Assembly: GCA_902782465.1 (NCBI GenBank)
Contig: CACZNH010000004.1
Span: 51,733-115,732, forward strand
Direction of reading: 5' to 3'
Length of the DNA: 64,000 nt
From: an uncultured Bacteroidales bacterium
GTDB lineage: Bacteria > Bacteroidota > Bacteroidia > Bacteroidales > Muribaculaceae
Shown here: piece by piece, positions 14,163 through 55,716 of the stretch
How positions within the stretch are numbered: the stretch's first letter is position 1
Layout: every line of letters starts with the position of its first letter
Made by a program: the position numbers and the translations under genes
The notes under the pieces: generated by a model
The model's input: the letters and a program-made list of their open reading frames with translations, nothing else
The model's database searches: none
What the model was told of the DNA's origin: nothing

Positions 14163-14196
14163 TTTAGGCATTAGGCTTTAGGCATTAGGCTTTAGC
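14163..14196 (+). repeat. Heptamer array 1 (TTAGGCA/TTAGGCT)
   Basis: Four alternating 7-bp units (TTAGGCA, TTAGGCT, TTAGGCA, TTAGGCT) plus a partial unit start at the base after the stop codon of 13170-14162. The units fit NNNTTAG. A terminator hairpin follows 20 bp later. Confidence 0.9.
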
Positions 14197-14215
14197 TTAT
14201 AGACGATTGATAGGC

Positions 14216-14249
14216 AAGGCGACTCGATATTCGGGTTGCCTTGTTTTTT
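14216..14249 (+). terminator. Terminator after paralogue 3
   Basis: AAGGCGACTCG pairs with CGGGTTGCCTT using two G-T pairs, followed by GTTTTTT. Confidence 0.75.
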
Positions 14250-14256
14250 ATGTATA

Positions 14257-14291
14257 TTTTTGCAAGAACGGTTTTTGGGCAGTACCTTTGC
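14257..14291 (+). promoter_or_regulatory. Promoter of paralogue 4 (14343)
   Basis: TTTTTG (14257-14262) and TACCTTTG (14283-14290) are 20 bp apart. The position of this promoter shows that the longer upstream in-frame extension (from 14241) is not translated. Confidence 0.75.
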
Positions 14292-14342
14292 GGCCTAATT
14301 GGATATAATAGATTTAAAAGAATTATCATTAACAGAAACACA

Positions 14343-15953
14343 ATGAAAAGAATTTTTACAGTATCTATGGCTATCGTGCTGGCTATGTTAATGGGCACGA
14401 CGATGTTGCATGCCGCAAGTCTTACCGTGTTTGACGGCAATCAGGTATCACCTTATGTGCCCCTGCCCACCGCTGCCTATAATGAGGGCGGCACCAGGGG
14501 TCAAGTTATTTTCCCTGCCGAAGCACTCCAGGACATGGTGGGGCAGCCCATCAACGGCTTTACCATGTATATCAATGACGAGGGTTGCAAGATGAACGGC
14601 GGCACGATGCGCGTGTCGGTGAAAGAGGTTGAGAACACTGCATTCTCCACCAAGACGTTTGTCAACGGCCTGACGACTGTTGCCCGTGTTGGGATGACTG
14701 CCGATCAGCATGAGGTTGACATCATTTTTGATGCCCCCTTTGATTATGAGGGTGGCAACCTGCTCATTGATTTTTATGTTCAGATGGCTGGTGAGTCGGG
14801 TGCTTACAATTTCACCTACTTCTATGGCCTTTTCCAGCAGAGCCACACTGCATTGACCACCGGCGACGAGGGTAACGAATATCGTGAGTTTATCCCCAAG
14901 ACCACGTTCTACTATGGTGACCTGGAACCTGTTGCAGCGCTTGTGAATCCTCGTGATGTGACTTTCAACACCATTAGGGTCGGTGAACGCGATGAGAAGA
15001 TGATTTCTCTCACCAATACCGGTTTGAATGCTTTCACTCCTGTTGTAACTGTCAACGCCCCCTTTAGCGCAACTGTGTCACAGGCTACCGTGCAACCTGG
15101 TGAGACGGCTGAAATCATTGTCGCCTTTGAGCCTGCTGCTCCTGGCCTGTACGAGGCCACACTGCAGGTGGACTGCGGCTATGATGTTGTCCTTGAGGTG
15201 CCCATGACTGCCGAGGCCCTTCAGAACGGTACTGAACTCGTTGTTGCCGAGGGTGGCGCTACCAACCAGTATCTGCCCTTCAACGGTATCTATACTGACG
15301 ACGAGAATACCATTGGTCAGATGATTTATCCCGCTTCGATGCTGACTGACATGCAGGGTAAGAACCTGGTAGCTCTCTCATTCTTTACCAGCAGCACCAT
15401 TAATCTGAGGAATGTCGCACTCGAACTCTCGCTGATGAACACCGATCAGGATGAGTTTGCAAGCGCTACTCCTATTACGGGCATGACCACCGTGGCAACC
15501 ACTGATGTTGTCAGGGGCGAGACGATGATTACCTTCGAGTTTGACCAGCCCTTTGAGTACGCTGGCGACAACCTCACCGTTCAGGTTAAGGTTGTGAAGA
15601 AGAGTGCTGTGACTACTGCAACCACCTTCTTCCTGGGTGTGAACACCGAGAATTATGCCGGCCTCTCATGCTACAAGAGCTGGAGCGGTGACAAGAAGGA
15701 ACGCCAGAAATTCCTCCCCAAGGCTGCTTTCCTGTATCAGGACGCTCCCGCCTTTGAGCGCGGCGATGTGGACAAGGACGGTCAGGTTGGTATCGGTGAT
15801 GTGACCTCACTGATTGACTATATCCTGAATGGTATGGCTCCTGGTGTTGACGATGATTCTGCCGACTGTGATTTGGACGGCGCTGTCAGCATCGGTGACG
15901 TGACCTCGTTGATTGACTATGTCTTGAACGGGGTTTGGCCGATGCCGCTCTGA
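14343..15953 (+). CDS. Secreted two-domain protein with ASH-like spacer and dockerin-like tail (paralogue 4)
   Basis: A 536-residue exported protein with the same build as paralogue 2: signal peptide to about residue 22 (...LHAAS), domain copy one (VFDGNQVSPYVPL to FIPKTTFYYG), an ASH-like spacer (VNPRDVTFNTIRVGERDEK..., VTVNAPFSATVS, ETAEIIVAFEPAAPG), domain copy two (VVAEGGATNQYLPF to FLPKAAFLY) and two dockerin-like loops (GDVDKDGQVGIGD, CDLDGAVSIGD). The start at 14343 gives a proper signal peptide and lies downstream of the promoter. The dockerin tail is closest to that of paralogue 1 (both contain IGDVTSLIDY and end LNGVWP). Function unknown. Confidence 0.8.
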   Translation: MKRIFTVSMAIVLAMLMGTTMLHAASLTVFDGNQVSPYVPLPTAAYNEGGTRGQVIFPAEALQDMVGQPINGFTMYINDEGCKMNGGTMRVSVKEVENTAFSTKTFVNGLTTVARVGMTADQHEVDIIFDAPFDYEGGNLLIDFYVQMAGESGAYNFTYFYGLFQQSHTALTTGDEGNEYREFIPKTTFYYGDLEPVAALVNPRDVTFNTIRVGERDEKMISLTNTGLNAFTPVVTVNAPFSATVSQATVQPGETAEIIVAFEPAAPGLYEATLQVDCGYDVVLEVPMTAEALQNGTELVVAEGGATNQYLPFNGIYTDDENTIGQMIYPASMLTDMQGKNLVALSFFTSSTINLRNVALELSLMNTDQDEFASATPITGMTTVATTDVVRGETMITFEFDQPFEYAGDNLTVQVKVVKKSAVTTATTFFLGVNTENYAGLSCYKSWSGDKKERQKFLPKAAFLYQDAPAFERGDVDKDGQVGIGDVTSLIDYILNGMAPGVDDDSADCDLDGAVSIGDVTSLIDYVLNGVWPMPL

Positions 15954-15994
15954 TGACGTAATTCGTCCATCAGTGACAAAACTCATAGATGATT

Positions 15995-16036
15995 GTTGCC
16001 TGTCGAGCATGTGCTTGATGGGCAACAACTTTTTTT
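15995..16036 (+). terminator. Terminator after paralogue 4
   Basis: A stem of about 15 bp with G-T wobbles, GTTGCCTGTCGAGCA against TGCTTGATGGGCAAC, is followed by AACTTTTTTT. Confidence 0.85.
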
Positions 16037-16195
16037 ATCGTCATAAAGCATTAATAGATAACTTTTTATTGTGTAATATTTTGGAATAGTTTTCCAAATT
16101 ATTTTTTAATGCATTGATTATTAGATGATTAATTTTTGAATCAGTCCAAAAAGTTTTCCAAAATATTTTTTTTGATATTTTTTTTAACTAAAGAG

Positions 16196-16227
16196 TTTGA
16201 CGTTTCAACGGAGTGTATTAACTTTGC
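16196..16227 (+). promoter_or_regulatory. Promoter of nrdD
   Basis: TTTG (16196-16199) and TAACTTTG (16219-16226) have the 19-bp spacing of Bacteroidetes promoters. The preceding 16037-16195 is AT-rich and holds two TTTTCCAAA motifs and no gene. Confidence 0.78.
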
Positions 16228-16236
16228 AGGCGCAAA

Positions 16237-16256
16237 CCGGCAGGGCCGGATTTTTT
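16237..16256 (+). promoter_or_regulatory. Small hairpin with T-run in the nrdD leader
   Basis: CCGGC and GCCGG flank a three-base loop and are followed by ATTTTTT, about 5 nt after the probable transcription start and 40 nt before the nrdD start codon. It looks like a minimal terminator or attenuator, though a five-pair stem is short. Confidence 0.4.
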
Positions 16257-16297
16257 ACGATAGCAATAGGTATAATCTAACTCTTTGATAAACTAAC

Positions 16298-18505
16298 ATG
16301 ATTCAGACGGTTCTTAAGCGTGATGGCCGTGTTGTCGGCTATAACGAGGAAAAAATCAAGGCAGCGATACGCAAAGCCATGCTCGCCACCGAGGCCGGTG
16401 AGGACGAGGGCTTGATTCAGCGCATCGCTGACCGCATTGGCCAGCGTGGCCGCAGCCAGATGAGTGTCGAGGATATTCAGGACCAGGTGGAGCTGGAGCT
16501 GATGAAGAGTCCGCGCAAGGAAGTCGCCCGCTGCTATATCAATTATCGCCAAAAACGCAGTGTTGCCCGCAAGGCCAAGACCCGTGACCTGTTCCTGGAA
16601 ATCATCAATGCCAAGAACAATGACGTTACCCGTGAGAATGCCAACATGAATGCCGACACCCCAGCCGGCATGATGATGAAGTTTGCCAGCGAGACGACCA
16701 AGCCCTTTGTCGATGACTATCTGCTCAGCGAAGAGGCTCGTGAAGCGGTGCGCGGCAACTATCTGCACATCCACGACAAGGACTACTATCCCACCAAGAG
16801 CTTTACCTGCGTCCAGCACCCGCTCGACAAGGTGCTCAAGCAGGGTTATATGGCTGGCCATGGCGAGTCCCGTCCCGCCAAGCGCATCGAGACCGCCGGC
16901 GTTATTGCCTGCATCACGATGGAGACGGCCCAAAACGAGATGCACGGTGGTCAGGCGATTCCCGCTTTTGATTTTTATCTTGCGCCCTTTGTGCGTGAGG
17001 CCTACATCGAGGAGGTAAAGAACCTGGAGAAACTCATGGGTCAGGACTACAGCCGCCTGTGTGACATTCAGGTCGAGGACTATATCGAGCGCGAACTCGA
17101 TTTCCTGCAGGGTGACGAGCGCATCATGCAACACGCCATCAACAGGACCGTGCGCCGTGTGCATCAGGCCATGGAGGCATTCATCCACAACATGAACACC
17201 ATCCACTCGCGTGGCGGTAACCAGGTGGTGTTCAGCTCCATCAACTACGGCACCGACACCAGTGCCGAGGGGCGTTGCATCATCCGCGAACTGCTCAACT
17301 CCACCTATCGTGGCGTGGGTAACGGCTCAACCGCCATCTTCCCCATCCAGATTTGGAAAAAGAAGACCGGCGTGAGCTACAAGCCCGGTGACCGCAACTA
17401 TGACCTCTACCAGCTGGCCTGCAAGGTGACGGCCCGCCGTTTCTTCCCCAACTTCGTCAACCTGGATGCTACCTACAACCAGCATGAGCTGTGGCGCCCG
17501 GATGACCCTGAGCGCTACAAGTATGAGTTGGCGACCATGGGTTGCCGCACGCGCGTACTCGAGAATAGATTTGGCGAGAAGACGTCCATCGGCCGTGGTA
17601 ACCTGTCATTCTCGACCATCAACATCGTGCGCCTCGCCATCGAGTGCATGGACATCAAGGACAAGCAGGAACGCATCGATCGCTTCTTTGCCAAACTCGA
17701 CAATATGCTCGAAGTTACCGCCCGCCAGCTTGACGCCCGCTTCCAGTACCAGAAGACGGCCATGGCCAAGCAGTTCCCGCTGCTCATGTCGCAGTTGTGG
17801 AACGGTGCCAATGAACTCGGTCCAGATGACAGGGTGGAGAGCGTCATCAACCAGGGAACGCTGGGTATCGGCTTCATCGGCCTGGCCGAGTGTCTGATTG
17901 CCCTTGTGGGCCATCATCACGGTGAGAGCGACGAGGCGCAGCAGCTGGGCTTGAAGATTATCACCTATATGCGTGACCGCGTCAATGAGTTCAGCGAGCA
18001 CTACCAGCACAACTATAGTGTGCTTGCCACGCCCGCCGAGGGACTGGCCGGCAAGTTCACGCGTCGCGACCGCAAGGATTTCGGTGAAATCCCCGGTGTT
18101 ACGGATAAGATTTACTATACCAACAGCAACCATGTGCCCGTCTATTACAAGTGTTCGCCCAAGCACAAGGCCGAGGTCGAGGCTCCCTATCACGAGCTGA
18201 CCCGTGGTGGTCACATCTTCTATGTTGAGATTGACGGCGATGCTACCCACAATCCCGAGGCCATTGCCAACGTGGTGGACCTGATGGACAAGTACAACAT
18301 GGGTTACTGCTCGGTGAACCACAACCGCAACCGCTGCATGGACTGCGGCTACGAGGATGCCACCGACGACCTCCACGAGTGCCCTGTGTGCCACAGTCAC
18401 AACATCGACCGCCTGCAGCGCATCACAGGCTATCTGGTCGGCACCACCGACCGCTGGAACAGCGGCAAGCTCGCCGAGCTCAAGGACCGCGTTGTCCACA
18501 AATAG
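16298..18505 (+). CDS. nrdD: Anaerobic ribonucleoside-triphosphate reductase
   Basis: A 735-residue glycyl-radical enzyme that reduces ribonucleoside triphosphates to deoxyribonucleotides without oxygen. An N-terminal ATP-cone (residues about 3-95, VLKRDGRVVGYNEEKIKAAI) provides allosteric control. The catalytic barrel follows. Near the C-terminus are four zinc-site cysteines (CMDC...CPVC) and the glycyl-radical loop RITGYLVGTTDRW, with Gly711 as the likely radical site. The activating enzyme nrdG lies 84 bp downstream across heptamer array 2. The gene's TAG stop is the first triplet of that array. Confidence 0.97.
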   Translation: MIQTVLKRDGRVVGYNEEKIKAAIRKAMLATEAGEDEGLIQRIADRIGQRGRSQMSVEDIQDQVELELMKSPRKEVARCYINYRQKRSVARKAKTRDLFLEIINAKNNDVTRENANMNADTPAGMMMKFASETTKPFVDDYLLSEEAREAVRGNYLHIHDKDYYPTKSFTCVQHPLDKVLKQGYMAGHGESRPAKRIETAGVIACITMETAQNEMHGGQAIPAFDFYLAPFVREAYIEEVKNLEKLMGQDYSRLCDIQVEDYIERELDFLQGDERIMQHAINRTVRRVHQAMEAFIHNMNTIHSRGGNQVVFSSINYGTDTSAEGRCIIRELLNSTYRGVGNGSTAIFPIQIWKKKTGVSYKPGDRNYDLYQLACKVTARRFFPNFVNLDATYNQHELWRPDDPERYKYELATMGCRTRVLENRFGEKTSIGRGNLSFSTINIVRLAIECMDIKDKQERIDRFFAKLDNMLEVTARQLDARFQYQKTAMAKQFPLLMSQLWNGANELGPDDRVESVINQGTLGIGFIGLAECLIALVGHHHGESDEAQQLGLKIITYMRDRVNEFSEHYQHNYSVLATPAEGLAGKFTRRDRKDFGEIPGVTDKIYYTNSNHVPVYYKCSPKHKAEVEAPYHELTRGGHIFYVEIDGDATHNPEAIANVVDLMDKYNMGYCSVNHNRNRCMDCGYEDATDDLHECPVCHSHNIDRLQRITGYLVGTTDRWNSGKLAELKDRVVHK

Positions 18506-18589
18506 GCATTAGGCATTAGGCATTAGGTTTTAGGTGTCATAAAAGGCCCTAAAGCCTAAAGCCTAAAGCCTAAAACCTAAAGCCTAAAA
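18506..18589 (+). repeat. Heptamer array 2, both arms, between nrdD and nrdG
   Basis: The left arm has GCATTAG three times and then GTTTTAG. The spacer is about 15 bp. The right arm has GCCTAAA units (with one ACCTAAA) and ends CCTAAAA directly against the nrdG ATG. The arms are complementary and could fold into a stem of about 30 bp with a few mismatches in the nrdD-nrdG mRNA. Confidence 0.92.
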
Positions 18590-19084: not shown

Positions 19085-19097
19085 ATAACCTCATTTT

Positions 19098-24162: not shown

Positions 24163-24275
24163 GTTCAGTTTTCAGTTTTCAGTTTTCAGTCGTCAGTTTT
24201 CAGTTTTCAGTTGTCAGTCGTCAGTTTTCAGTTTTCAGTTGTCAGTCGTCAGTTTTCAGTTTTCAGTTTTCAGTC
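24163..24275 (-). repeat. Heptamer array 3 (TTTTCAG family, 16 units)
   Basis: The longest array, strictly periodic at 7 bp on the plus strand: TTTTCAG interspersed with TCGTCAG and TTGTCAG. A 28-bp higher-order unit (TCGTCAG, TTTTCAG, TTTTCAG, TTGTCAG) is repeated twice and then begins again. Two decayed units (TCGCCTG, ACTCCTG) continue to about 24289. On the coding (minus) strand it reads CTGANNN and carries a TGA in every unit, so all three frames are closed just before the chromate transporter start. Confidence 0.95.
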
Positions 24276-26255: not shown

Positions 26256-26278
26256 ATTATTCTCAGTTTTATTTTGTT

Positions 26279-26355
26279 CTAGGTTTTAGGCTTTTAGGTT
26301 TTAGGCATTAGGTGGCATACGCAAAAAAACTAACGCCTAATGCCTGACACCTAAC
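26279..26355 (-). repeat. Heptamer array 4, both arms, between ileS and the dksA-like gene
   Basis: On the plus strand, GTTTTAG, GCTTTTAG, GTTTTAG and GCATTAG units face CTAACGC, CTAATGC and decayed CTGACAC, CTAAC units across a short A-rich spacer. On the coding strand the TTAG arm lies next to the ileS stop and the CTAA arm ends about 24 bp before the dksA-like start. One unit is 8 bp, otherwise the period is 7. Confidence 0.85.
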
Positions 26356-31152: not shown

Positions 31153-32304
31153 ATGTTAGACAAATTATTATTGCAGATTCCGGTGGCGGCGCCCGACACG
31201 GTGGCTGCGCACAAGATACAGCAAGCGACCAATGCTGTGACGTCGCGCGTGGACTCGCTGGCGAATAAACTCAGCCCCGACTCCATTGCGGCGATGACGC
31301 CCGGCAAACTGGTTGACGAGTTCAAGTACCTGGACATCGGCAGCCTGGTGACCTCGCTGTCGAGCCAGCTGATTTCGCTGACGCTGCGCATACTTGCCGC
31401 TATCCTGATTTTCTATCTGGGCAAGTTCATCATCAACAAGATTTACAGTGTGGCGCGTGCCATCATGATACGCAAGGACTTTGACCGCTCGTTGACGTCG
31501 TTCCTGCTGTCGTTCATCAAGATCACGCTGCTGTTCCTGCTCATCATCACCGTCATCGGTGTGTTGGGCATCGAGACCAGTTCGTTCATCGCCATCTTTG
31601 CCAGTGCCGGTGTCGCCATCGGTATGGCGTTGAGCGGCACGCTGCAGAACTTTGCCGGCGGTGTGCTCATCCTGTTGCTGAAGCCTTACAAGGTGGGCAA
31701 CTACATCGAGTTTGGCGAGTTGAAGGGGACGGTGCGCGAAATCCAGATTTTCAACACCGTCATCAATACCTATAATAATGACCGCATCGTCATTCCCAAC
31801 GGCGGCCTGGCCACCAGTTCGCTGAAGAACTTCAGCGCCGAGCCTTACCACCGCGTGGAGTGGCGCGTGGGCATCACCTACGGCGACGACGTGGACACCG
31901 CCCGTAAGGTCGCCCTCGACATCCTCGCTGCTGACCCGCGTGTCGTCCATACCGATGCCGACGTCAAGGAGGAAGAACTGCCCGTAGAGGAGGCTCCCCA
32001 GGAAGAGGTGAAGCCCGAGCCGTGGTGGAAACGCCTGTTCCGCTGGCATCGCCGCCGCGCCGAGGAGCTGCGCGAGGAACATGATGCACGCCTCGCTGCC
32101 TTGATTCCCAAGCCCAATTATTCGCCTAGTGTCAATGTCGAGAGCCTTGACGAGAGTCAGGTGACGCTCATTGTGAGGGCTTGGACCGAAATTGCCAACT
32201 ATTGGAACGTCCTGTACGACGTGAACGAGCAGATTTACAAGCAATTCCCGCAGCACGGCATCCACTTCCCGTTCCCGCAGATGGACGTACATGTCAAGCA
32301 GTAA
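31153..32304 (+). CDS. MscS-type mechanosensitive channel with charged insert
   Basis: A 383-residue membrane channel that opens under membrane tension to release solutes. Three hydrophobic helices lie at about 75-180; the pore helix is ASAGVAIGMALSGTLQNFAGGVL and is followed by the beta domain (YKVGNYIEFGELKGTVREI, VIPNGGLATSSLKNFS). Between about residues 268 and 318 the cytoplasmic domain carries a highly charged insert (EEELPVEEAPQEEVKPEPWW then KRLFRWHRRRAEELREEHD) not usual in the family. The stop codon TAA is the first unit of heptamer array 5. Confidence 0.92.
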   Translation: MLDKLLLQIPVAAPDTVAAHKIQQATNAVTSRVDSLANKLSPDSIAAMTPGKLVDEFKYLDIGSLVTSLSSQLISLTLRILAAILIFYLGKFIINKIYSVARAIMIRKDFDRSLTSFLLSFIKITLLFLLIITVIGVLGIETSSFIAIFASAGVAIGMALSGTLQNFAGGVLILLLKPYKVGNYIEFGELKGTVREIQIFNTVINTYNNDRIVIPNGGLATSSLKNFSAEPYHRVEWRVGITYGDDVDTARKVALDILAADPRVVHTDADVKEEELPVEEAPQEEVKPEPWWKRLFRWHRRRAEELREEHDARLAALIPKPNYSPSVNVESLDESQVTLIVRAWTEIANYWNVLYDVNEQIYKQFPQHGIHFPFPQMDVHVKQ

Positions 32305-32332
32305 GTTTTAAGTTTTAAGTTATAAGTAATAT
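32302..32332 (+). repeat. Heptamer array 5 (TTTTAAG)
   Basis: TAAG, TTTTAAG, TTTTAAG, TTATAAG, TAATATAA: 7-bp periodic, beginning with the stop codon of the mechanosensitive channel gene. Confidence 0.85.
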
Positions 32333-35857: not shown

Positions 35858-35893
35858 ATTTTAGTTTTAAGTTTTTAGTTTTAAGTTGTAAGT
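35858..35893 (-). repeat. Heptamer array 6 (TTTTAAG/TTTTTAG)
   Basis: On the plus strand: TTTTAG, TTTTAAG, TTTTTAG, TTTTAAG, TTGTAAG. On the coding strand it reads CTTAAAA/CTAAAAA and ends one A/T triplet from the ATG of the ABC ATPase gene. Confidence 0.9.
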
Positions 35894-41034: not shown

Positions 41035-42453
41035 ATGAAAGGTAAAAAGATAATGATGGCACTGGCAATGAGCGCATTAACACTCATGGGCAGCGCCGCT
41101 GTCCCCGACTGGCAGAGCCAGGTGGACGAGCTGATTGCACAGGGCGAATTTGCCCGTGCCGAGAAAGTGATGAAATCGCTGCCGAAGAAGGTGCGTCAAG
41201 CCGATGCCGTGCGCATCGACTCGTTGCGCACCATCATGCAGCGCATCCGCACCGACTTCCGCATCACTCCCGAGGAGGGGGTGAAGCTTATCCGCGCGAA
41301 GATGCCCGAGGCCACTGATGCCCAGATTGAGAACTGGAAGCGCACCCGAGCCCTGGAGGTGATGAACATCGACGGCAAGGAGATGTGGTTCCGCAAGAGT
41401 GTGGGCAACCTGTGGCTGCTGGGCAAGGAGTTTGCCGCACAGAATGCTGCCGACAACCATGAGAGTTATCTCACCCGTCGCAAGTATTACCTGGAGGCCA
41501 TGCGCACGCCTGCCGACAAAAACAATGTGCGTGACTGGCGTCATGTGAACATCACGTTCACCCTCGACGTCGATGCCGATGCCGTGCCCGCCGGTGAAAC
41601 CCTGCGCGTGTGGATGCCTTTCCCCTATGAGAATCTGCGTCAAAAGAACATCCGTCTTGAGAGCAGCAACCGTGAGGTGACCTTCAGCCAGGGCAGCTTG
41701 CACCACACCGTGTATATGGAGGCTGTTGCCGAGAAGGGCAAGCCGACACACTTTGAGTACACATTCTCCTACGACGTGGGTGAGCGCCATTACAGCCAGC
41801 AGGACCTCATCGCCATGCTGGAGCCCTATAATACCGATAGCGAGGAATATAAGCGCTTTACCGGCGACGAGCCGCGCCACGTCATCATCACCGACGATAT
41901 GCGTGCCCTGGCCCGCAAAATTGTAGGGGACGAGACCAACCCCGTACTGCAGGCCGCCAAGATTTATGAGTGGATTGGCTATAACCTGCCGTGGGCTGGT
42001 GCCCGTGAATACAGCACACTGGCCAACATCCCGCAATATGTCATCGAGAACAACCATGGCGACTGCGGACAGGTGGGCCTGCTCTATATCACGCTGGTGC
42101 GTTCGCTGGGCATTCCCGCACGATGGGAGAGCGGCTGGATGCTGCATCCCGACGAAATCAACTGGCATGACTGGTGTGAGACCTACTTTGAGGGTATCGG
42201 CTGGATTCCCACCGACCCGTCGTTCGGGCGCAGCGCTGTCGGTACTACGCTCAACGATTATTATGCCACGGGTATCGATGTGTACCGCATGGCGACCAAC
42301 GAGGGCGTGGGCGACAAACTCAGTCCGGCGAAGACCTTCATCCGCAGCGAGACTGTGGATTTCCAGCCCGGTGAGGTCGAGTGGCGCAAGGGCAACTTGT
42401 TCTACGACAAGTGGGACAGCCATCTGAAGGTGAATTCGATTACTAGGCTTTAG
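41035..42453 (+). CDS. Transglutaminase-like cysteine protein, exported
   Basis: A 472-residue periplasmic protein. After a signal peptide (to about residue 22) is a helical N-terminal region, then a transglutaminase-core domain with the catalytic Cys in NHGDCGQVGLLY, His in INWHDWCETYFEG and Asp in WIPTDPSFG. Such proteins act as peptidases or amidases in bacteria. Followed by an NlpC/P60 protein and a dipeptide epimerase, it probably takes part in processing cell-wall or other peptides. The last two codons (CGN-type AGG, CTT) and the TAG stop lie inside heptamer array 7. Confidence 0.87.
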   Translation: MKGKKIMMALAMSALTLMGSAAVPDWQSQVDELIAQGEFARAEKVMKSLPKKVRQADAVRIDSLRTIMQRIRTDFRITPEEGVKLIRAKMPEATDAQIENWKRTRALEVMNIDGKEMWFRKSVGNLWLLGKEFAAQNAADNHESYLTRRKYYLEAMRTPADKNNVRDWRHVNITFTLDVDADAVPAGETLRVWMPFPYENLRQKNIRLESSNREVTFSQGSLHHTVYMEAVAEKGKPTHFEYTFSYDVGERHYSQQDLIAMLEPYNTDSEEYKRFTGDEPRHVIITDDMRALARKIVGDETNPVLQAAKIYEWIGYNLPWAGAREYSTLANIPQYVIENNHGDCGQVGLLYITLVRSLGIPARWESGWMLHPDEINWHDWCETYFEGIGWIPTDPSFGRSAVGTTLNDYYATGIDVYRMATNEGVGDKLSPAKTFIRSETVDFQPGEVEWRKGNLFYDKWDSHLKVNSITRL

Positions 42454-42513
42454 GCTTTAGGTTTTAGGCTTTAGGTTTTAGGTTTTAGAAATTAGTAGGT
42501 TTTAGAAATTAGA
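42444..42513 (+). repeat. Heptamer array 7 (GCTTTAG/GTTTTAG)
   Basis: About nine units: GCTTTAG twice, GTTTTAG, GCTTTAG, GTTTTAG, GTTTTAG, then AAATTAG, TAGGTTTTAG and AAATTAG. The array begins inside the end of the transglutaminase gene and ends about 12 bp before the NlpC/P60 start. Confidence 0.93.
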
Positions 42514-43680: not shown

Positions 43681-43693
43681 GCAAACGGGGGTT

Positions 43694-43757
43694 GGTGATT
43701 GGTGATTAGAGATTAGAGATTAGTGATTAGTGATTAGTGATTAGAGAGATTGATTAG
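43694..43757 (+). repeat. Heptamer array 8 (TGATTAG/AGATTAG)
   Basis: TGATTGG, TGATTAG, AGATTAG, AGATTAG, three TGATTAG units, then AGAGATTGATTAGG. It lies between the NlpC/P60 stop and the epimerase start, about 25 bp before the ATG. Every unit carries a TAG and most a TGA. Confidence 0.93.
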
Positions 43758-45781: not shown

Positions 45782-45785
45782 TATC

Positions 45786-47261: not shown

Positions 47262-47294
47262 ATGAGATAACAGATATTAGATATCAGATAATAG
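47262..47294 (+). repeat. Heptamer array 9 (AGATANN)
   Basis: AGATAAC, AGATATT, AGATATC, AGATAAT, AGATGG: 7-bp units, rotating to ATATTAG/ATAATAG, which fit NNNTTAG loosely. The array fills the whole gap between the MBOAT stop and the next start; the ATG is part of the last unit (AGATGG). Confidence 0.8.
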
Positions 47295-47891
47295 ATGGAG
47301 AATGAGAATTTGATAGAATTGAAGGTCTTAGGGATTACCCGCAGCGAGGTTCAGCCTGGAGCTTACGCCTTGCTGCTGGAGAATGCCGACAGTACGCCCG
47401 AGATGGCTCGGCGCATCCCCATTGTGGTGGGAACTGCCGAAGCCCAGTCCATCGCCATGCACATGGAGCAAGTGACGCCATCCAGGCCGCTGACGCATGA
47501 CCTGTTTGTGAGCATGTTCCATGTTTATGGCATCGAGTTGCAGCGGGTCGTCATTTATAGCTTCAAGGATGGCGTGTTTGCCGCAATGCTTCATGTCGCC
47601 AATGCCACGACCGCTGTCGAGATTGACTCGCGCACGAGCGACGCCATCGCCATCGCGTTGCGGACAGGAGCGCCCATCTTCACCACGCGAGAGGTGATGG
47701 ACCTCACCAGCTATGAGTGGCGTAAAGACGGCAACTACAAGCCCCAGAAACCCGTGCGCCTTGAGGACCTGCCGGTCGAGAAGCTGGAGCGCCGTCTGCA
47801 GCAGTATGTGGACCGCGAGGAATATGAGCGAGCAGCCAAAATCCAAAAAATCATTGCCCAGAAAACTAATTCCCAGCAAAGTGGCGAATAG
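47295..47891 (+). CDS. Bifunctional nuclease (BFN/DUF151) with UVR motif
   Basis: A 198-residue protein with the BFN domain (about 5-135; EARRIPIVVG-like MARRIPIVVGTAEAQSIAM, SRTSDAIAIALRTGAPIF) followed by a short UVR coiled motif at the C-terminus (LERRLQQYVDREEYERAAKIQKII). The family was named after a plant nuclease; the role in bacteria is uncertain, and the UVR motif suggests contact with a Uvr- or Clp-type partner. The ATG is embedded in heptamer array 9. Confidence 0.9.
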   Translation: MENENLIELKVLGITRSEVQPGAYALLLENADSTPEMARRIPIVVGTAEAQSIAMHMEQVTPSRPLTHDLFVSMFHVYGIELQRVVIYSFKDGVFAAMLHVANATTAVEIDSRTSDAIAIALRTGAPIFTTREVMDLTSYEWRKDGNYKPQKPVRLEDLPVEKLERRLQQYVDREEYERAAKIQKIIAQKTNSQQSGE

Positions 47892-47952: not shown

Positions 47953-49272
47953 ATGAAGAATCTGAAATTGAGACTGATTGTAATGAACTTCCTGGAGTTT
48001 GCCGTGTGGGGTGCCTATCTGACCTGCATGGGCAACTATCTGGGACGTGCCGGCATGGGCGAGGTGATTGCATGGTTCTATGCCATCCAGGGTATCGTGT
48101 CGATTTTCATGCCGACGCTGATGGGTATTGTCGCCGACAAGTATATCCAGCCGCAGCGTCTGTTGGGTATCTGCCACCTGATTGCAGGTGCCGCTATGGT
48201 GATGCTGGCCTATATCGGCATGACCAATCCCATGCCCGACAAGGCCTTGTTCATCACGATTTACACGATTAGTGTGGCATTCTATATGCCCACGTTGGCG
48301 TTGTCCAATACGGTGGCCTTTACCATCCTCAAGGACAACCACATGGATACCGAGAAGGATTTCCCGCCCATCCGCGTGTTCGGCACCATCGGTTTCATCG
48401 CCACGATGTGGTTTGTGAACTGTGCTTTCATGGATGGCGGCAGCTTCGGCTTCACGCTGGGCGAGAATGCCGGCAAATTCCAGTACACCTACATGCAGTT
48501 TATGGTGTCGGGTCTGTTGAGCTTCGTGCTGTTCCTGTATTGCATGACTTTGCCCGAGTGCAAGCTGGTGAAGAAAGAGGAACAATCGCTGGCCGAAAAA
48601 TTGGGCTTGAGCGCCTTCAAGCTGTTTAAGACCAAGAAGATGGCTATGTTCTTCATCTTCTCGGCAATGCTGGGTATGTCACTGCAGGTGACCAACGGTT
48701 TTGCCACGCCTTATCTGACCCACTTCAAGAGTGACCCCGCAATGGCTGACACCTTCGGCGCCAACAATGCCACGATGCTCGTGTCACTGTCCCAGATTGC
48801 CGAGGCACTGTGCATCCTCTTGATTCCGTTCTTCCTGAAACGATTCGGTATCAAGGTGGTGATGCTCATCGCCATGTTCGCCTGGGTATTGAGGTTTGGT
48901 TTCTTCGGAGCCGGCAACCCCGCCTTCCCCGGTGTTATCCTGATTGTGCTGTCTTGCCTGGTATATGGCGTTGCGTTTGACTTCTTCAACGTCTCGGGCG
49001 GCATCTTTGTGGACAAGGAATGTGCCCCCGACATCAAGGCATCGGCTCAGGGCCTGTTCATGCTGATGACCAACGGTCTGGGTGCCACCATCGGCACACT
49101 GGCAGCCGGCGCTATCGTCAACAGCCTGTGCCACTGGACCGAGGACGGCTTCCTCGTGGGCAACACCCCGACGAGCTGGAGCACGGCATGGTTCATCTTT
49201 GCTACGTTTGCCCTGGTGGTAGCCGTATCGTTCATGTTCCTGTTCAAGTACAAACACGAGCGCCAGAAATAA
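47953..49272 (+). CDS. Nucleoside:H+ symporter family MFS transporter
   Basis: A 439-residue inner-membrane permease with about 12 TM helices. Resemblance to NupG/XapB-type symporters is seen in the N-terminus (LRLIVMNFLEFAVWGAYLTC), the RVFGTIGFIATMW segment and NVSGGIFVDKECAPDIKASAQGLF near helix 10. It would import nucleosides for salvage. The TAA stop is the first triplet of heptamer array 10. Confidence 0.9.
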   Translation: MKNLKLRLIVMNFLEFAVWGAYLTCMGNYLGRAGMGEVIAWFYAIQGIVSIFMPTLMGIVADKYIQPQRLLGICHLIAGAAMVMLAYIGMTNPMPDKALFITIYTISVAFYMPTLALSNTVAFTILKDNHMDTEKDFPPIRVFGTIGFIATMWFVNCAFMDGGSFGFTLGENAGKFQYTYMQFMVSGLLSFVLFLYCMTLPECKLVKKEEQSLAEKLGLSAFKLFKTKKMAMFFIFSAMLGMSLQVTNGFATPYLTHFKSDPAMADTFGANNATMLVSLSQIAEALCILLIPFFLKRFGIKVVMLIAMFAWVLRFGFFGAGNPAFPGVILIVLSCLVYGVAFDFFNVSGGIFVDKECAPDIKASAQGLFMLMTNGLGATIGTLAAGAIVNSLCHWTEDGFLVGNTPTSWSTAWFIFATFALVVAVSFMFLFKYKHERQK

Positions 49273-49378
49273 GTTTTAAGTTTTTAGTTGTAAGTTTTAA
49301 GTAATATTACCTATGCCTTTTCGTTTTATAGGCGATAGTAATCGTACTTAAAACTAAAAACTTACAACTTAAAACTGA
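49270..49378 (+). repeat. Heptamer array 10, both arms, between the nucleoside transporter and rsmE
   Basis: The left arm (49270-49303: TAAG, TTTTAAG, TTTTTAG, TTGTAAG, TTTTAAG) and right arm (49345-49378: CTTAAAA, CTAAAAA, CTTACAA, CTTAAAA, CTGA) are complementary. The 41-bp spacer contains a further pairable pair (ATTACCTATGCC and GGCGATAGTAAT), so the whole 109 bp could fold as one long hairpin. The right arm ends 7 bp before the rsmE ATG. Confidence 0.93.
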
Positions 49379-49385
49379 GGGATTT

Positions 49386-50123
49386 ATGCACCGTTTCTAT
49401 TGTCCTGACATAGCCGACACGTTGACGCTGGGCGAGGAGGATTCCAAGCACTGCGTCAAGGTGCTGCGCATGGGCGAGGGCGACACCATCGAGGTGGTGG
49501 ACGGAAACGGTAACTTATACACTTGCAGCATCACGATGGCGCACCCCAAACGGTGTGCCGTCGAGGTGCTGGAGAGCTTCCACCAGACCCCACACTGGGG
49601 CCACCGCATCGTGCTGGGCATCGCGCCCACCAAGAATCTGGACCGCATGGAGTGGCTGGTGGAGAAATGCGTTGAGATGGGCGTGGACCGCATCATCCCG
49701 CTGCGATGCCACAACAGTGAGCGCACGGTGCTCAAGACCGAGCGGCTGAGGAAAATCATGGTGTCGGCGATGAAGCAGTCGCTCAAGGCCACGTTGCCCC
49801 AGTTGGACGAAATGACGCCCGTGGAGCAGGTCGTGGCAGAGCCGTTTGACGGCACGCGTTGCATCGCCTACTGTGACGCGATGCTGCCTCGTGAACAGCG
49901 CCACACCCTTGCCAGCGCCTATCAGCCCGGCCGTGATGTGCTGGTGCTCATCGGGCCTGAGGGCGACTTCAGCCCCGATGAGGTGCAGGCTGCCCGTGAT
50001 GCGGGTTTTGTGCCCGTGACGCTGGGCGAGAGCCGTCTGCGCACCGAGACTGCCGGCATGATGGCTGTCGCCGCCATCCATACAATTAATAGTTTTCAGT
50101 TGTCAGCGGCATCCGCTTACTGA
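49386..50123 (+). CDS. rsmE: 16S rRNA (uracil-N3)-methyltransferase RsmE with repeat-derived tail
   Basis: A 245-residue SPOUT-class enzyme that makes m3U1498 in 16S rRNA. The N-terminal PUA-like domain (about 1-70; HCVKVLRMGEGDTIEVVDG) is followed by the knotted SAM-binding domain with MEWLVEKCVEMGVDRIIPLRC, VLVLIGPEGDFSPDEV and LGESRLRTETAG. The family normally ends soon after the last helix; here the final residues FQLSAASAY are encoded by the composite repeat at 50085-50163, which also supplies the TGA stop. The same SAASAY string is encoded by the other copy of that repeat at 55630. Confidence 0.95.
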   Translation: MHRFYCPDIADTLTLGEEDSKHCVKVLRMGEGDTIEVVDGNGNLYTCSITMAHPKRCAVEVLESFHQTPHWGHRIVLGIAPTKNLDRMEWLVEKCVEMGVDRIIPLRCHNSERTVLKTERLRKIMVSAMKQSLKATLPQLDEMTPVEQVVAEPFDGTRCIAYCDAMLPREQRHTLASAYQPGRDVLVLIGPEGDFSPDEVQAARDAGFVPVTLGESRLRTETAGMMAVAAIHTINSFQLSAASAY

Positions 50124-50163
50124 AGATGAAGGACTGAAAACTGAGAACTGAAAACTGAAAACT
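50085..50163 (+). repeat. Composite heptamer element, copy A, between rsmE and kdsA
   Basis: ATTAATAGTTTTCAGTTGTC leads into a core (AGCGGCATCCGCTTACTGAA, GATGAAGGACTGAAAACTGA) and then CTGAGAA, CTGAAAA, CTGAAAA units. A TTTTCAG arm thus faces a CTGAAAA arm across a core that has its own hairpin GCGGCATCCGC. Copy B at 55630-55716 matches it nearly base for base except for a 7-bp insertion in the left arm. Confidence 0.93.
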
Positions 50164-50174
50164 TCAAAAGAGAT

Positions 50175-50999: not shown

Positions 51000-51033
51000 T
51001 TGGAGGACAAATAACAATCAGTTCAAGATAAAC

Positions 51034-52635
51034 ATGAAGACATCATCAGCGAGAACAATTCTTACGTTCGTCATGGCCGTTATGGCTATGGCAGCCCTGG
51101 CCCAGAGCAGCGACGACGTCCTGAGGGACAAAATCACCGATGCGGTGATGAAGGTCTATGATGAACAGCTCGCCAAGGATCCCGGGGACTACAACACGCT
51201 GTTTGCCCGTGCCCATCAGAATTATTATAATGGAGACTTCACGGCAGCCCTTGCCGACTTGAACCAGGCGATGCTGCTGACTCCGTCCAGCGACAAGGAC
51301 TTGCGCTTTGACGAGCACATCCTGCGCGCACGCATCAGCGATGCCCGTCAGGACTATGCCAGCGCGCTCTCTGACCTGCTGCTGGCACAGGAGCTCCAGC
51401 CCAAGTCGCTGCCATGTGTCGACCTGATTGCCAAGACCAACCTGAAGATGGGTAACCTGGATGCCGCCGAGAAGGCGTTCAAGACCATCCTGCGCAGCGA
51501 GGCTATGAACTATGACGCGATGTATGGCATGGCTCAGGTGGAGCTGGCGCGTGGCAAGGCCAAGGAAGCCGTTGAGCACGTGTCCAATGCCGTGCAACTG
51601 TTCCGTGCCGAACCTCAGGTATATGTGAACCGCGCCGATATCTTTACCCGCCTGGGAGATACCTACAGCGCTGTGATTGACCTGTTGCAGGGCATGAATG
51701 TGGGCAATGGCGGCACAGCAGCCCAGTGCCTGTTTGATTTGAGCGACAACGATTATGATGGCGTGGTGGGTGCTCTCGACAGCCTGTCAAGAACGCTTCC
51801 TGAAAACGGCATGATGTTCCGTTATCTGCGAGGCAACATCGCCCTGGACCACACCCGCTATGCTCAGGCTTTGAAGGACTTTGAGTTGGTAAAGCGCAGT
51901 GGCGAGTATAACACCCCAACGCTGTATCATCACCTGGCCAAGTGCTGCATGGAACTGGCACGGTATGACGAGGCGCAGGCCTATATTGACAAGGCCCTCG
52001 AGATGGACCCGTCACAGCCCGAATTCTACCTGGTGAAAGCCACAGCCCAGTATTATGGTGGTGAGAGTGGCGATGTCCAGGAGGCTATGAACACGCTGGA
52101 CCGCTGCTCAACGGTAGCCCCGTATTATGTTCCCATGCTGCTGACCAAAGCCGCCATGCTGAGCGCCCAGGACAACGATGGTGAGGCACTGAGTTACCTC
52201 AATGCCGCTGTCGCCAACGACCCCGATGACACCGAGGCCCGCCTGGCAAGAGCGTTGACCCTGCGCCGCATCGGCAATGAGGATGCCGCCCTGAGAGACC
52301 TCGAGACGGTGTCGCGCTTCGGCGATGACCTCTATGACTTCAGGGGCTTCGCGTTGAGTCTGCTGGGACGTGACCACGACATGTACGAATGGCTTGACAA
52401 GGTGACCAAGAAGAAACAGCCTGGTGGAGAGAGCCTCTACTATGCCGCTGCCCTGATGGCGATGCGTAACAACAACATCGCTGCGATTGATTACCTGCGC
52501 AGGGCATTGGAGCAGGGCTACGGCAGTCTGCACATGCTGCGTGACGATGTCTTCTCGCCCATTGGTATCAAGGCGCTGCGTGAAGTCCCCGACTTCCAGT
52601 CGCTGTTGGAGAAGGCACAGCGCAACTTTGAGTAG
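51034..52635 (+). CDS. Large exported tetratricopeptide-repeat protein
   Basis: A 533-residue protein with a signal peptide to about residue 23 (...AALAQ) and TPR units along most of its length (for example YNTLFARAHQNYYNGDFTAAL, AYIDKALEMDPSQPEFYLVKAT, ALRDLETVSRFGDDLYDF). It lies 34 bp after kdsA and just before a TamL-like assembly factor, so a scaffolding role in envelope biogenesis is possible; sequence gives no specific partner. An in-frame start at 50980 overlaps kdsA and was rejected in favour of the ATG that opens the signal peptide. Its last codons and TAG stop lie in repeat 12. Confidence 0.82.
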   Translation: MKTSSARTILTFVMAVMAMAALAQSSDDVLRDKITDAVMKVYDEQLAKDPGDYNTLFARAHQNYYNGDFTAALADLNQAMLLTPSSDKDLRFDEHILRARISDARQDYASALSDLLLAQELQPKSLPCVDLIAKTNLKMGNLDAAEKAFKTILRSEAMNYDAMYGMAQVELARGKAKEAVEHVSNAVQLFRAEPQVYVNRADIFTRLGDTYSAVIDLLQGMNVGNGGTAAQCLFDLSDNDYDGVVGALDSLSRTLPENGMMFRYLRGNIALDHTRYAQALKDFELVKRSGEYNTPTLYHHLAKCCMELARYDEAQAYIDKALEMDPSQPEFYLVKATAQYYGGESGDVQEAMNTLDRCSTVAPYYVPMLLTKAAMLSAQDNDGEALSYLNAAVANDPDDTEARLARALTLRRIGNEDAALRDLETVSRFGDDLYDFRGFALSLLGRDHDMYEWLDKVTKKKQPGGESLYYAAALMAMRNNNIAAIDYLRRALEQGYGSLHMLRDDVFSPIGIKALREVPDFQSLLEKAQRNFE

Positions 52636-52699
52636 TTAGAAGTGAGTAGTGTAGGGCCTAGCCTCGGCGTGGCCGTAAGAAGTTAGTAGTTAGGAGTGT
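52631..52699 (+). repeat. Heptamer array 12 with GGCC palindrome element, copy 2
   Basis: AGTAGTT, AGAAGTG, AGTAGTG units lead into the palindrome GGCCTAGCC/GGCGTGGCC (52655-52674) and then AGAAGTT, AGTAGTT, AGGAGTG. The palindrome and its flanks (GAGTAG...GGGCCT...GGCGTGGCCG..AGAAG) match the copy at 32349-32391. Confidence 0.85.
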
Positions 52700-52707
52700 T
52701 TGGGGAA

Positions 52708-55047: not shown

Positions 55048-55076
55048 GCCGCGCACCTCTCTTTCAAACAACTAGG

Positions 55077-55118
55077 ACAACGTTGAACAACATAAACAAC
55101 TTTTTATGTTGGGTTGTC
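55077..55118 (+). terminator. AT-rich hairpin after the TamL-like gene
   Basis: AACAACATAAA pairs with TTTATGTTGGGTT around a short CAACTT loop. It lies about 50 bp after the stop but lacks a T-run, so it may be a terminator or an RNA-stability stem. The remaining 55119-55250 shows no gene. Confidence 0.45.
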
Positions 55119-55250
55119 GCGCACTCTTCTTTCTGTCGACGGATTAGGCTGATTAACGGATTTTGGCATCCGCATGGCTGTTGTCTCACACCAATGACTG
55201 CCAGCACAATCAGTTGTCTGTTCATCCATTTAAAAAATAATGGCCGCTTT

Positions 55251-55284
55251 TTTGTTGGCGTAAGGAAAAAAGTATTAATTTTGC
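55251..55284 (+). promoter_or_regulatory. Promoter of the second cobalamin locus
   Basis: TTTGTTGG at 55251-55258 and TAATTTTG at 55276-55283 are about 18 bp apart. Confidence 0.75.
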
Positions 55285-55302
55285 ATCCAGATTAAAGTGT
55301 TA

Positions 55303-55487
55303 AGGTTCTTGAAGGCGTGTTTGCGTCATCGGGATTAAAAGGGAATCAGGTGAGAATCCTGGACAGTACCCGCTGCTGTAACTCCCCACGACACATCGCT
55401 CGGCATCATGCCACTGGTTGCAACTGCATGGCTGCATCATCACCGGGAAGGCGCCGACACGATGGGGGAGAAGTCAGAAGACCTGCC
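55303..55487 (+). promoter_or_regulatory. Cobalamin riboswitch, second copy
   Basis: All conserved elements are present: TTAAAAGGGAA, GGTGAGAATCCTGGACAG, CCCGCTGCTGTAA and the B12 box AGTCAGAAGACCTGCC at 55470-55485. It is closer to the textbook consensus than the btuB copy. The gene it controls starts 238 nt downstream, beyond a stretch without a gene and the composite repeat. Confidence 0.94.
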
Positions 55488-55629
55488 TCCACACTGCCTG
55501 TTTAACGTGGTTCACGCGGCATTTGGACCCTGGCAAAGTTGATGATGCGGCACACTTCACTGCCCATTCTATTCTGAGTCACCACCAGCCACCCTCAGCG
55601 CTGGCCGTTCATGTCGCTGGATTCACATT
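55488..55629 (+). other. Gap between riboswitch and composite repeat
   Basis: About 140 bp of GC-balanced sequence (unlike the AT-rich intergenic sequence nearby) without a convincing gene. Its base composition resembles coding DNA, and it may be what is left of a gene that once followed the riboswitch. Confidence 0.3.
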
Positions 55630-55716
55630 ATTAATGGTTTTCAGTTTTCATTCGTCAGCCGCATCCGCCTACTGAAGATGAAGGACTGAAAACTGAAAAC
55701 TGAAGACTGACAACAG
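55630..55716 (+). repeat. Composite heptamer element, copy B
   Basis: ATTAATGGTTTTCAGTTTTC, then a core (AGCCGCATCCGCCTACTGAA, GATGAAGGACTGAAAACTGA) and CTGAAAA, CTGAAGA, CTGACAA units, ending 7 bp before the ATG at 55724. The core differs from copy A (50085) only in two compensated or neutral positions, GCGG to CCG and CTT to CCT. Confidence 0.93.

What the first reader, a model, noticed from the sequence alone, without database searches (positions are those of the whole stretch)
14163..55716. A family of 7-bp tandem arrays (NNNTTAG) at gene junctions
Twelve junctions in 64 kb carry short tandem arrays: 14163, 18506, 24163, 26279, 32302, 35858, 42444, 43694, 47262, 49270, 50085/55630 and 52631. 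The unit sequence changes from site to site (GCATTAG, GCTTTAG, GTTTTAG, TTTTAAG, TTTTCAG, TGATTAG, ATATTAG, TAGTTAG), but the period stays at 7 bp and the unit fits NNNTTAG with small deviations. Homogeneous units within a site and divergent units between sites imply local amplification under a shared rule. On the coding strand the TTAG orientation lies next to the upstream stop and the CTAA/CTGA orientation next to the downstream start. Nearly every unit carries a stop codon on at least one strand, and a 7-bp period puts stops in all three frames. I know of no named element with these properties.
Basis: seen in the sequence. Interest (0 to 1): 0.88.

Follow-up and report, generated by a model that had tools for sequence, protein, structure and literature searches.

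The report
Heptad-armed palindromes between bacterial genes
The gaps between genes of this Bacteroidales bacterium are littered with short 7-letter tandem repeats that often face each other as mirror-image arms; close relatives carry different repeat letters at the same gaps while the two arms of a pair tend to match, which makes this an unusual and fast-changing variant of the little-understood heptanucleotide repeats known from other bacteria.

Summary
The arrays are real and far above chance. In the window plus 40 sampled stretches of its own genome (791,254 readable bp) period 7 and its multiples stand out: 84 strict arrays, 82 intergenic. The rule is TNAG-NNN rather than NNNTTAG (89 of 95 arrays; about 20% by chance). 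The orientation claim holds: of arrays with the core in codirectional gaps, 33 of 41 nearer the stop read TNAG in sense and 33 of 36 nearer the start read it in antisense. Relatives carry other units at the same junctions, yet arms of one species tend to match. Wobble-type mismatches are not enriched, so the matching looks like DNA-level copying rather than RNA selection. One pair of relatives shows an inverted core, two pairs 7-bp-step length change. Heptamers in facing pairs with this polarity are already described for Xanthomonas (polarity also for Nostoc), so this is a new variant of a known kind. Why 7 bp, and why TNAG, stays open.

The parts
14163..14195 (+). left-arm type array, TTAGGCA/TTAGGCT, begins directly after the stop codon of 13170-14162
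18503..18527 (+). left arm TTAGGCA at the end of nrdD (16298-18505); the stop TAG is part of the first unit
   Evidence: nrdD
18548..18588 (-). right arm (CCTAAAG)n, ends 1 bp before the ATG of 18590-19084 (called nrdG here by position and size; family not tested)
24164..24274 (+). longest array, TCAGTTT/TCAGTTG with a 28-bp higher-order period; sense (minus-strand genes) = CTGA arm before the start of 23560-24162
26276..26313 (+). TTAGGTT/TTAGGCA array = start-side arm for the minus-strand gene 25869-26255
26330..26355 (-). facing CTAACGC/CTAATGC array = stop-side arm of ileS (26359-29853, minus strand)
32302..32327 (+). TAAGTTT array starting in the stop codon of 31153-32304, followed by a GC-rich hairpin-like stretch GTAGGGCCTCGCCTTGGCGTGGCC (32356-32379)
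35859..35893 (+). TTTTAG/TTTTAAG array = start-side arm of the minus-strand gene 35183-35857
42444..42512 (+). TTAGGCT/TTAGGTT array covering the last codons of 41035-42453; 8 of the 13 distinct relatives' sequences printed have only 11-14 bp here
43692..43744 (+). TTAGTGA array after the stop of 42526-43680; arrays of other units at the same junction in 8 of 18 close relatives
47265..47296 (+). weak array (AGATAAC/AGATATT) between 45786-47261 and 47295-47891
49270..49302 (+). left arm TAAGTTT starting in the stop codon of 47953-49272
49346..49376 (-). right arm ACTTAAA before rsmE (49386-50123)
50093..50116 (+). short left arm TTTTCAGTTGTCAG and core GGCATCCGC; both are read as the last codons of the rsmE frame, which has 245 codons while the 18 best relatives' matches end at residues 234-237
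50133..50163 (-). right arm ACTGAAA before 50175-50999
52631..52694 (+). irregular TAGTTAG-like repeats around a GC-rich hairpin-like stretch (GTAGGGCCTAGCCTCGGCGTGGCC, 52651-52674); below array thresholds
55638..55668 (+). short left arm TTTTCAGTTTTCATTCGTCAG with a core variant CCGCATCCGC, downstream of a cobalamin riboswitch (55286-55504)
55671..55719 (-). right arm ACTGAAG/ACTGAAA, ends just before the ATG of 55724-58294

Best explanation
Many of the arrays are the arms of a family of intergenic palindromic elements, [TNAG heptads]-centre-[CTNA heptads], that lie mostly between codirectional or convergent genes. Shown: structure, placement, unit rule, arm pairing, different units at the same junction in different species, 7-bp-step length differences, one core inversion (all by comparing sequences). 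Inferred: the arms grow and shrink by replication slippage in 7-bp steps; the two arms stay complementary because one arm templates the other at the DNA level (template switching across the hairpin, or recombination between the inverted arms, which also flips the core); new unit types arise by spread of variants and by exchange between elements. The elements fill the space between stop and start codons because that is where they do least harm. At the start side the A-rich strand is the sense strand, which would suit Bacteroidota initiation regions (recalled, not tested). No single one of the junctions compared needs an element, since some relatives have junctions of 11-18 bp without any. I do not know what fixes 7 bp or TNAG.
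For: Period and placement. Facing arms: 33 codirectional junctions of 276 examined, 33 of 33 in the order TNAG then CTNA; among 71 strictly defined junctions 32 '+-' pairs and no '-+' pair. Arms match their own partner better than partners from other junctions: unit distance 1.81 against 2.59 (32 pairs), 0 of 2000 shuffles as low; duplex energy -22.7 against -17.4 kcal/mol (33 pairs), 7 of 5000 shuffles as low. Core GGCATCCGC/GCGGATGCC: 33 intergenic and 25 coding copies where 18% is intergenic; in 19 of 21 codirectional cases TNAG lies within 25 bp on the left and CTNA on the right (12% by chance), with 9 cores in one orientation and 12 in the other. nrdD-nrdG junction: 8 of 29 genomes (own included) have facing arms, with units TTAGG*, TTAGCC*, TAAGT*/TTAGT*, TCAGT*; own partner -28.4 against other species' partner -15.1 kcal/mol; 3 of 40320 partner permutations, the true one included, do as well; with one species per unit class (5 species) only the true one among 120. 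Core of L034 matches the inverted core of L033 at 17 of 20 bases (11 direct; shuffled maximum 10). G179 and G180 differ by 28 bp in a CTCCTAA array; L033 and L034 differ by one unit. DNA rather than RNA: 9 wobble-compatible against 22 A.C-type mismatches between arms (p = 0.03, the opposite of what RNA selection predicts); sense and antisense folds of whole junctions equal, sense lower in 18 of 33.
Against: The own partner is the best of 33 in only 2 cases; it is among the best 11 in 20 of 33 and the worst in 2, and clearly unmatched arms occur (L239, L271 and L280; own L020:16150), so coupling is incomplete. 30 of 71 strict junctions, all codirectional, show only one arm (17 right only, 13 left only), and 2 in convergent or divergent gaps likewise. 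Between-species matching rests on one junction with 8 genomes; ileS had 3, three other junctions 1 each and two none. No slippage or inversion was watched, and the inversion rests on one pair of species. The wobble test had 31 informative mismatches and could miss weak RNA selection; 22 of 33 arm pairs are slightly more stable in sense (p = 0.20). Shuffles treat related sequences as independent. Genes were called with a crude codon-usage script of mine, not a published gene finder.
Confidence: 0.55

Rival explanations
1. Mobile palindromes (REPIN- or MITE-like): whole elements with arms and core are copied by a transposase, and unit differences between species at one junction come from replacement by a different copy.
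For: A shared core at many junctions and in a few relatives between other arms (4 of 27 distinct copies, coding ones included); patchy distribution (TTTTCAGx3 in 8 of 40 genus-mates; 3 of 148 other genomes of the order); one junction holds quite different palindromes in different species; a broken Y1 transposase in the own genome (L217) has two heptad arrays within 200 bp.
Against: The two near full-length Y1 transposase genes of the own genome have no array in the 7-8 kb fetched around each; 5 of the 20 Y1 regions fetched hold an array at score 11 or more, about what the general density gives. Y1_Tnp occurs in 38 of 41 genus genomes, with or without TTTTCAG arrays. No target-site duplication was seen in the junctions read by eye. 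A shared heptad rule with different letters is not what copying of one element gives. Other transposase families were not searched.
Confidence: 0.22
2. Functional RNA hairpins between cotranscribed genes (stabilising the upstream mRNA, or tuning translation of the downstream gene), with arm complementarity kept by selection.
For: Codirectional and convergent placement, scarcity in divergent gaps (3 of 93 arrays against 23% of intergenic bp); many arrays end 1-13 bp before a start codon; junctions with an arm fold more stably per base (61 junctions, -0.233, against 70 without, -0.184).
Against: Mismatches between arms are not of wobble type (9 against 22) and sense folds are no better than antisense folds. 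Many relatives lack any element at the same junction. None of the 48 terminator-like sites found in 39.8 kb of the window overlaps an array there.
Confidence: 0.13
3. Plain heptanucleotide microsatellites: independent slippage products in unconstrained DNA, with pairs arising by chance.
For: Heptamers are reported as the commonest long simple repeats in many bacteria (Mrazek 2007 as cited in PMC4679880 and PMC4692102); 32 of 71 strict junctions show one arm only.
Against: 33 of 33 pair order, arm matching, shared core and the TNAG rule are not expected of independent microsatellites.
Confidence: 0.07
4. Translation-stop or phase-variation devices, kept because a 7-bp step shifts the frame and supplies stops.
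For: 15 of 33 left arms overlap the stop codon and TCAG, which has no sense stop, is rare in left arms; in relatives too arrays follow directly on TAG, TAA or TGA.
Against: The arrays lie outside genes (82 of 84), so unit changes do not switch frames; right arms carry similar units without any such need; several stand beside housekeeping genes (nrdD, ileS, rsmE).
Confidence: 0.03

Closest known systems
GGGAATC / GGGGA(C/T)T heptameric repeats of Xanthomonas and Nostoc (Rehm 2015, PMC4692102; start of abstract, passages, sections 10 and 16 read)
   Same: Period 7; in the two Xanthomonas genomes 89-93% intergenic, 70 and 75 facing pairs, nearer the upstream gene, few between divergent genes, mostly the same genes with different length and sequence in the two species; polarity (coding strand downstream, non-coding strand upstream) stated for all three organisms; function unknown
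   Different: One G-rich unit type that forms G-quadruplexes in vitro; here units are many, share TNAG and (one TNAG unit type excepted) have no GGG run, arms tend to match within a species while units differ between species, and a core occurs in both orientations
TAACTGA direct repeats of marine Beggiatoaceae, some cyanobacteria and five Bacteroidetes (MacGregor 2015, PMC4679880; abstract and sections 3, 8, 10 read)
   Same: Heptamers between genes, often just before a start codon; TAACTGA is TCAGTTA on the other strand and fits TNAG; mostly 7-nt indels between two close Cyanothece strains
   Different: One fixed unit, related heptamers rare, nearly all direct; here a family of units, many in facing pairs, and TCAGTTA is not among the 21 TNAG consensus units seen
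Heptanucleotide long simple sequence repeats (Mrazek 2007) and cyanobacterial STRRs (recalled, and the former as cited in the two papers above)
   Same: Period 7, intergenic, tandem
   Different: The class is defined by tandem repetition only; facing arms, core and unit rule are not part of it as far as I have read
REP / BIME / REPIN elements (PMC3733652 and PMC3116915, abstracts and outlines only)
   Same: Palindromic, downstream of genes, between unidirectional or convergent genes, facing pairs; tetranucleotide tag GTAG resembles TNAG
   Different: Defined by a conserved hairpin and, for GTAG REPs, linked to RAYT transposases; here arms are heptad arrays of changing sequence and no clear RAYT link was found

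Membership tests
Heptameric intergenic repeats (LSSR class; Xanthomonas/Nostoc type) | 7-bp tandem period clearly above other periods | tested here: met
   84 arrays at period 7 against 0-9 at non-multiples; 0 in 10 shuffles of the window
Heptameric intergenic repeats (LSSR class; Xanthomonas/Nostoc type) | intergenic, near gene ends, few between divergent genes | tested here: met
   82 of 84 intergenic; 3 of 93 divergent
Heptameric intergenic repeats (LSSR class; Xanthomonas/Nostoc type) | facing (convergent) pairs | tested here: met
   33 codirectional junctions of 276 have both arms, all in one order
Xanthomonas/Nostoc G-rich heptamers | GGGA-type unit able to form G-quadruplexes | tested here: not met
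   of the 21 TNAG consensus unit types (89 arrays) only TTAGGGG, one array, has a GGG run; one of the 6 other arrays (GTCCCGT) has CCC
TAACTGA repeats | unit TAACTGA | tested here: not met
   TCAGTTA absent from the consensus units of 89 arrays
REP/REPIN | conserved short hairpin with GTAG or CGTC tag | tested here: not met
   arms are heptad arrays of varying sequence; core GGCATCCGC has no such tag. A separate GTAG-started GC-rich stretch stands beside two arrays
REP/REPIN | cognate RAYT gene flanked by the elements | tested here: not met
   no arrays or GGCATCCGC cores around the two near full-length Y1_Tnp genes of the own genome, L215 and L216; but a broken one in L217 has two arrays within 200 bp
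MITE | terminal inverted repeats with target-site duplication | tested here: inconclusive
   inverted arms present; no duplication seen by eye at filled/unfilled junctions, which are too diverged to judge
Intrinsic terminator | GC-rich stem followed by a T run | tested here: not met
   no terminator-like site overlaps an array in 14000-33900 or 40000-59900; the array at 35859 was not scanned
Phase-variable contingency repeat | unit number varies between strains and switches a gene | not testable with these tools
   one genome per species held; between-species length change only

The most novel reading that the evidence does not exclude
A self-renewing class of DNA palindromes whose arms are written in a 7-letter 'TNAG' code: an unidentified enzyme or replication process that recognises TNAG in one arm, copies it in 7-bp steps and templates the other arm from it, so that the letters turn over between species while period, TNAG, pairing and place persist. 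The same process would underlie the facing heptamers of Xanthomonas.
Probability: 0.2. Interest if true: 0.8.

Novelty: new variant of a known kind. Interest (0 to 1): 0.52.

Why it matters
Heptamer repeats have been noted for years without an accepted cause, and the best-studied case was tied to G-quadruplexes. This genome shows the same architecture with units that lack G runs, so quadruplex formation is not needed for it. Because dozens of related species carry different units, or none, at the same junctions, it gives a natural experiment on how such arrays are born, how two arms stay matched, and whether selection acts on RNA or DNA.

Tried and rejected
RAYT/Y1 transposase as the mobiliser: the gene family is widespread in the genus (38 of 41); the two near full-length own-genome copies have no arrays beside them, and the sequence printed around L215 shows another repeat; L217 is an exception with a broken copy. 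Cyanobacterial comparison: 150 kb of Trichormus variabilis plasmid A gave 3 period-7 arrays, none with TNAG, too few to say anything on cyanobacterial repeats. Another family with TTTTCAG arrays (G322): 4 TNAG arrays of 6 in 39.9 kb chosen for them, none in facing pairs at the threshold (one, L304:5915, has a short facing CTGAAAAC by eye), and no TNAG array in 80 kb not chosen for them. RNA-hairpin selection: not supported. Intrinsic terminators: no overlap. Rfam: two cobalamin riboswitches in the window, nothing on the arrays. Autocorrelation of intergenic DNA: the own-genome rows are spoilt by N runs; repeated without N, where lag 7 (0.289) and lag 21 (0.289) exceed lags 6 (0.279), 8 (0.275) and 9 (0.283) but not lag 3 (0.291). 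The coding share (76%) and chance rate for TNAG (15%) were spoilt by the same N runs and are replaced (82%; 20-21%). My notebook holds rougher counts of relatives with arrays; the counts, 8 of 18 at each of two loci, stand.
Full report
What is there. Two scans find the arrays.

More than chance. I sampled the window plus 40 stretches of its own genome (863,254 bp, of which 72,000 bp are withheld and read N, leaving 791,254 bp). Genes were called by a codon-usage script of mine (569 genes). At score 13 or more there are 84 arrays of period 7, 56 of period 14, 43 of period 21 and 17 of period 28; other periods from 3 to 30 give 0-9. 82 of the 84 are intergenic, where 18% of readable sequence is intergenic. 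At score 12 there are 95 arrays; 89 units contain TNAG on one strand (21 unit types; commonest TCAGTTT 17, TTAGGCT 12, TAAGTTT 9, TCAGTTG 7, TTAGGCG 7), against 19.7-21.4% of intergenic 7-mers. One array in coding sequence and one more without a called gene on both sides were dropped, leaving 93 for the placement table.

Placement. Of 93 arrays, 79 lie between codirectional, 11 between convergent and 3 between divergent genes; divergent gaps hold 23% of the bp in gaps of 30 bp or more. In codirectional gaps the sense strand reads TNAG in 33 of the arrays nearer the stop (8 antisense, 1 without core) and CTNA in 33 of those nearer the start (3 sense, 1 without core). Many start-side arrays end 1-13 bp before the start codon. 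15 of 33 left arms overlap the stop codon; TCAG, the one core without a sense stop, is 1 of 33 left arms and 15 of 32 right arms. At rsmE (49386-50123) a short TCAG arm and the core are read as the last codons: the frame has 245 codons while the 18 best relatives' matches end at residues 234-237.

Two arms and a core. Of 71 strictly defined junctions, 32 hold a '+' arm followed by a '-' arm (29 codirectional, 3 convergent), 30 codirectional ones and 2 others only one arm, 2 two '+' arms, 5 no arm with a countable core, and none the order '-+'. With a looser threshold 33 of 276 codirectional junctions (30-700 bp) have both arms, 33 of 33 in the order TNAG then CTNA. Arms match their own partner better than partners shuffled among junctions (unit distance 1.81 against 2.59, none of 2000 shuffles as low; duplex energy -22.7 against -17.4, 7 of 5000), but not strictly: the own partner ranks first of 33 in 2 cases, within the best 11 in 20 and last in 2. 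Between the arms sits, in one subfamily, GGCATCCGC or its reverse complement: 33 intergenic and 25 coding copies; of 21 in codirectional junctions 19 have TNAG within 25 bp on the left and CTNA on the right (chance 12%), 9 in one and 12 in the other orientation. In relatives 4 of 27 distinct copies, coding ones included, lie between two or more TNAG and two or more CTNA. A second centre (AAGTA..ATTACT..TCGCCT / AGGCGA..AGTAAT..TACTT) and a GC-rich stretch (GTAGGGCCTCGCCTTGGCGTGGCC) recur by eye at other junctions.

Relatives. At the two loci compared first, 8 of 18 close relatives (at least 83% protein identity) have an array at score 11 or more in the fetched locus and 0 of 11 more distant genus members do. 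The units differ from species to species (for example AGTTTAG, CTCTAAA, CCTAAAG, AGTTAGG, ACAACTT around rsmE; GAGTTAG, AGTTAGG, GGTTAGA, TTAGGAA, GAGGAGT after the ortholog of 42526-43680); all 17 listed for these relatives fit TNAG when rotated by hand. The distant members are not free of arrays elsewhere. Densities at score 12: 62 per Mb in 275 kb of close relatives (13 of 17 TNAG), 43 in 117 kb of distant ones (3 of 5), 28 in 106 kb of the six nearest named loci (2 of 3), 17 in 1.33 Mb of other named Bacteroidales loci (10 of 23); 55 in 200 kb of three close relatives (10 of 11) and 50 in 60 kb of one distant one (3 of 3); about 120 in the own genome (95 in 0.791 Mb). Exact units are narrowly spread: TTAGGCATTAGGCATTAG occurs 10 times in the own genome, in none of 9 genus-mates and in 1 of 139 other genomes of the family; TTTTCAGx3 occurs 90 times in the own genome, 1-15 times in 8 of 40 genus-mates and in 3 of 148 other genomes of the order.

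Coupled change. At nrdD-nrdG (the second gene named by position only) 8 of 29 genomes, own included, have facing arms of several unit classes; the own partner gives -28.4 kcal/mol and another species' partner -15.1; 3 of 40320 partner permutations, the true one included, do as well, and with one species per unit class only the true pairing among 120. This was the only junction with enough species: of the other six, ileS had 3 (own partner -14.3, others -8.3), three had 1 each and two none; the window's own sequence was put in for four of the seven. Unmatched arms exist as well (L239, L271, L280). L033 and L034 share the arms TATCAGTTTTCAGTT / AACTGAAAACTGATA but the 20-bp centre of one matches the reverse complement of the other at 17 of 20 bases, and they differ by one 7-bp unit. 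G179 and G180 differ by 28 bp in a CTCCTAA array. At 42453/42526, 8 of the 13 distinct relatives' sequences printed are 11-14 bp long, without any array, so an element is dispensable there.

DNA or RNA. If a hairpin in mRNA were under selection, arm mismatches should favour G.U over A.C on the sense strand. The count is 9 against 22 (p = 0.03 the other way), with 93 transversions and 585 matches; sense and antisense folds of whole junctions do not differ (sense lower in 18 of 33; arms alone 22 of 33, p = 0.20). None of 48 terminator-like sites in 39.8 kb touches an array. I therefore favour DNA-level copying between arms; it is inferred, not seen.

What is known. Nine searches of the paper library were made. 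The closest is Rehm 2015 (PMC4692102; start of abstract, passages, sections 10 and 16 read): heptamers in Xanthomonas and Nostoc, with facing pairs in Xanthomonas, the same polarity, the same scarcity between divergent genes, and unknown function. MacGregor 2015 (PMC4679880; abstract, sections 3, 8 and 10) describes TAACTGA repeats, which fit TNAG, including in five Bacteroidetes. REP and REPIN papers were seen as abstracts and outlines only. I found no report in these searches of heptad arms whose units change between species while the pair stays matched, of the TNAG rule, or of a core in either orientation between heptad arms; the library lacks most subscription papers.

Verdict. The interpretation as an unnamed new kind is not: it is a new variant of heptameric intergenic repeats. 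What is added is the palindromic organisation with a core, the TNAG rule, the partly coupled turnover of arms, and evidence that the pairing is kept at the DNA level.

Noticed in passing
window 55286-55504 and 3007-3226: Two cobalamin riboswitches (Rfam RF00174); a facing heptad pair lies between the first of these and the start codon of 55724-58294, so it is probably in the riboswitch leader.
   Followed up: partly
L255, L256, L258, L259, L261, L262 (nrdD-nrdG junction of relatives): A second class of facing arms with a roughly 9-bp period (AACAACNNN ... GTTGTTNNN), seen by eye; other 9-bp repeats (TCCATCCAG, TCTAGAAAA) lie in junctions of L151, L153, L154 and L193.
   Followed up: no
L248, L251; own genome L026:8563: A MITE-like palindrome beginning GTGTCATAA sits at the nrdD-nrdG junction of two relatives and recurs in the own genome (AATTATGACAC 21 intergenic and 1 coding copies in the sample).
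   Followed up: partly
window 32356-32379 and 52651-52674: GC-rich hairpin-like stretch GTAGGGCC..GGCC with a GTAG start, like GTAG-tagged REPs, beside heptad arrays.
   Followed up: no
L215 around 3355-3693: A Y1 transposase (RAYT-like) gene with GCCCCATTGGGGC-like repeats on both sides, unrelated to the heptads.
   Followed up: partly
window 24164-24274: The longest array has a 28-bp higher-order period (four heptads, 97% matches), a sign of block duplication.
   Followed up: no
window 43692-43744: Its unit GTGATTA is the heptanucleotide that PMC4692102 cites for Helicobacter pylori; probably coincidence.
   Followed up: no
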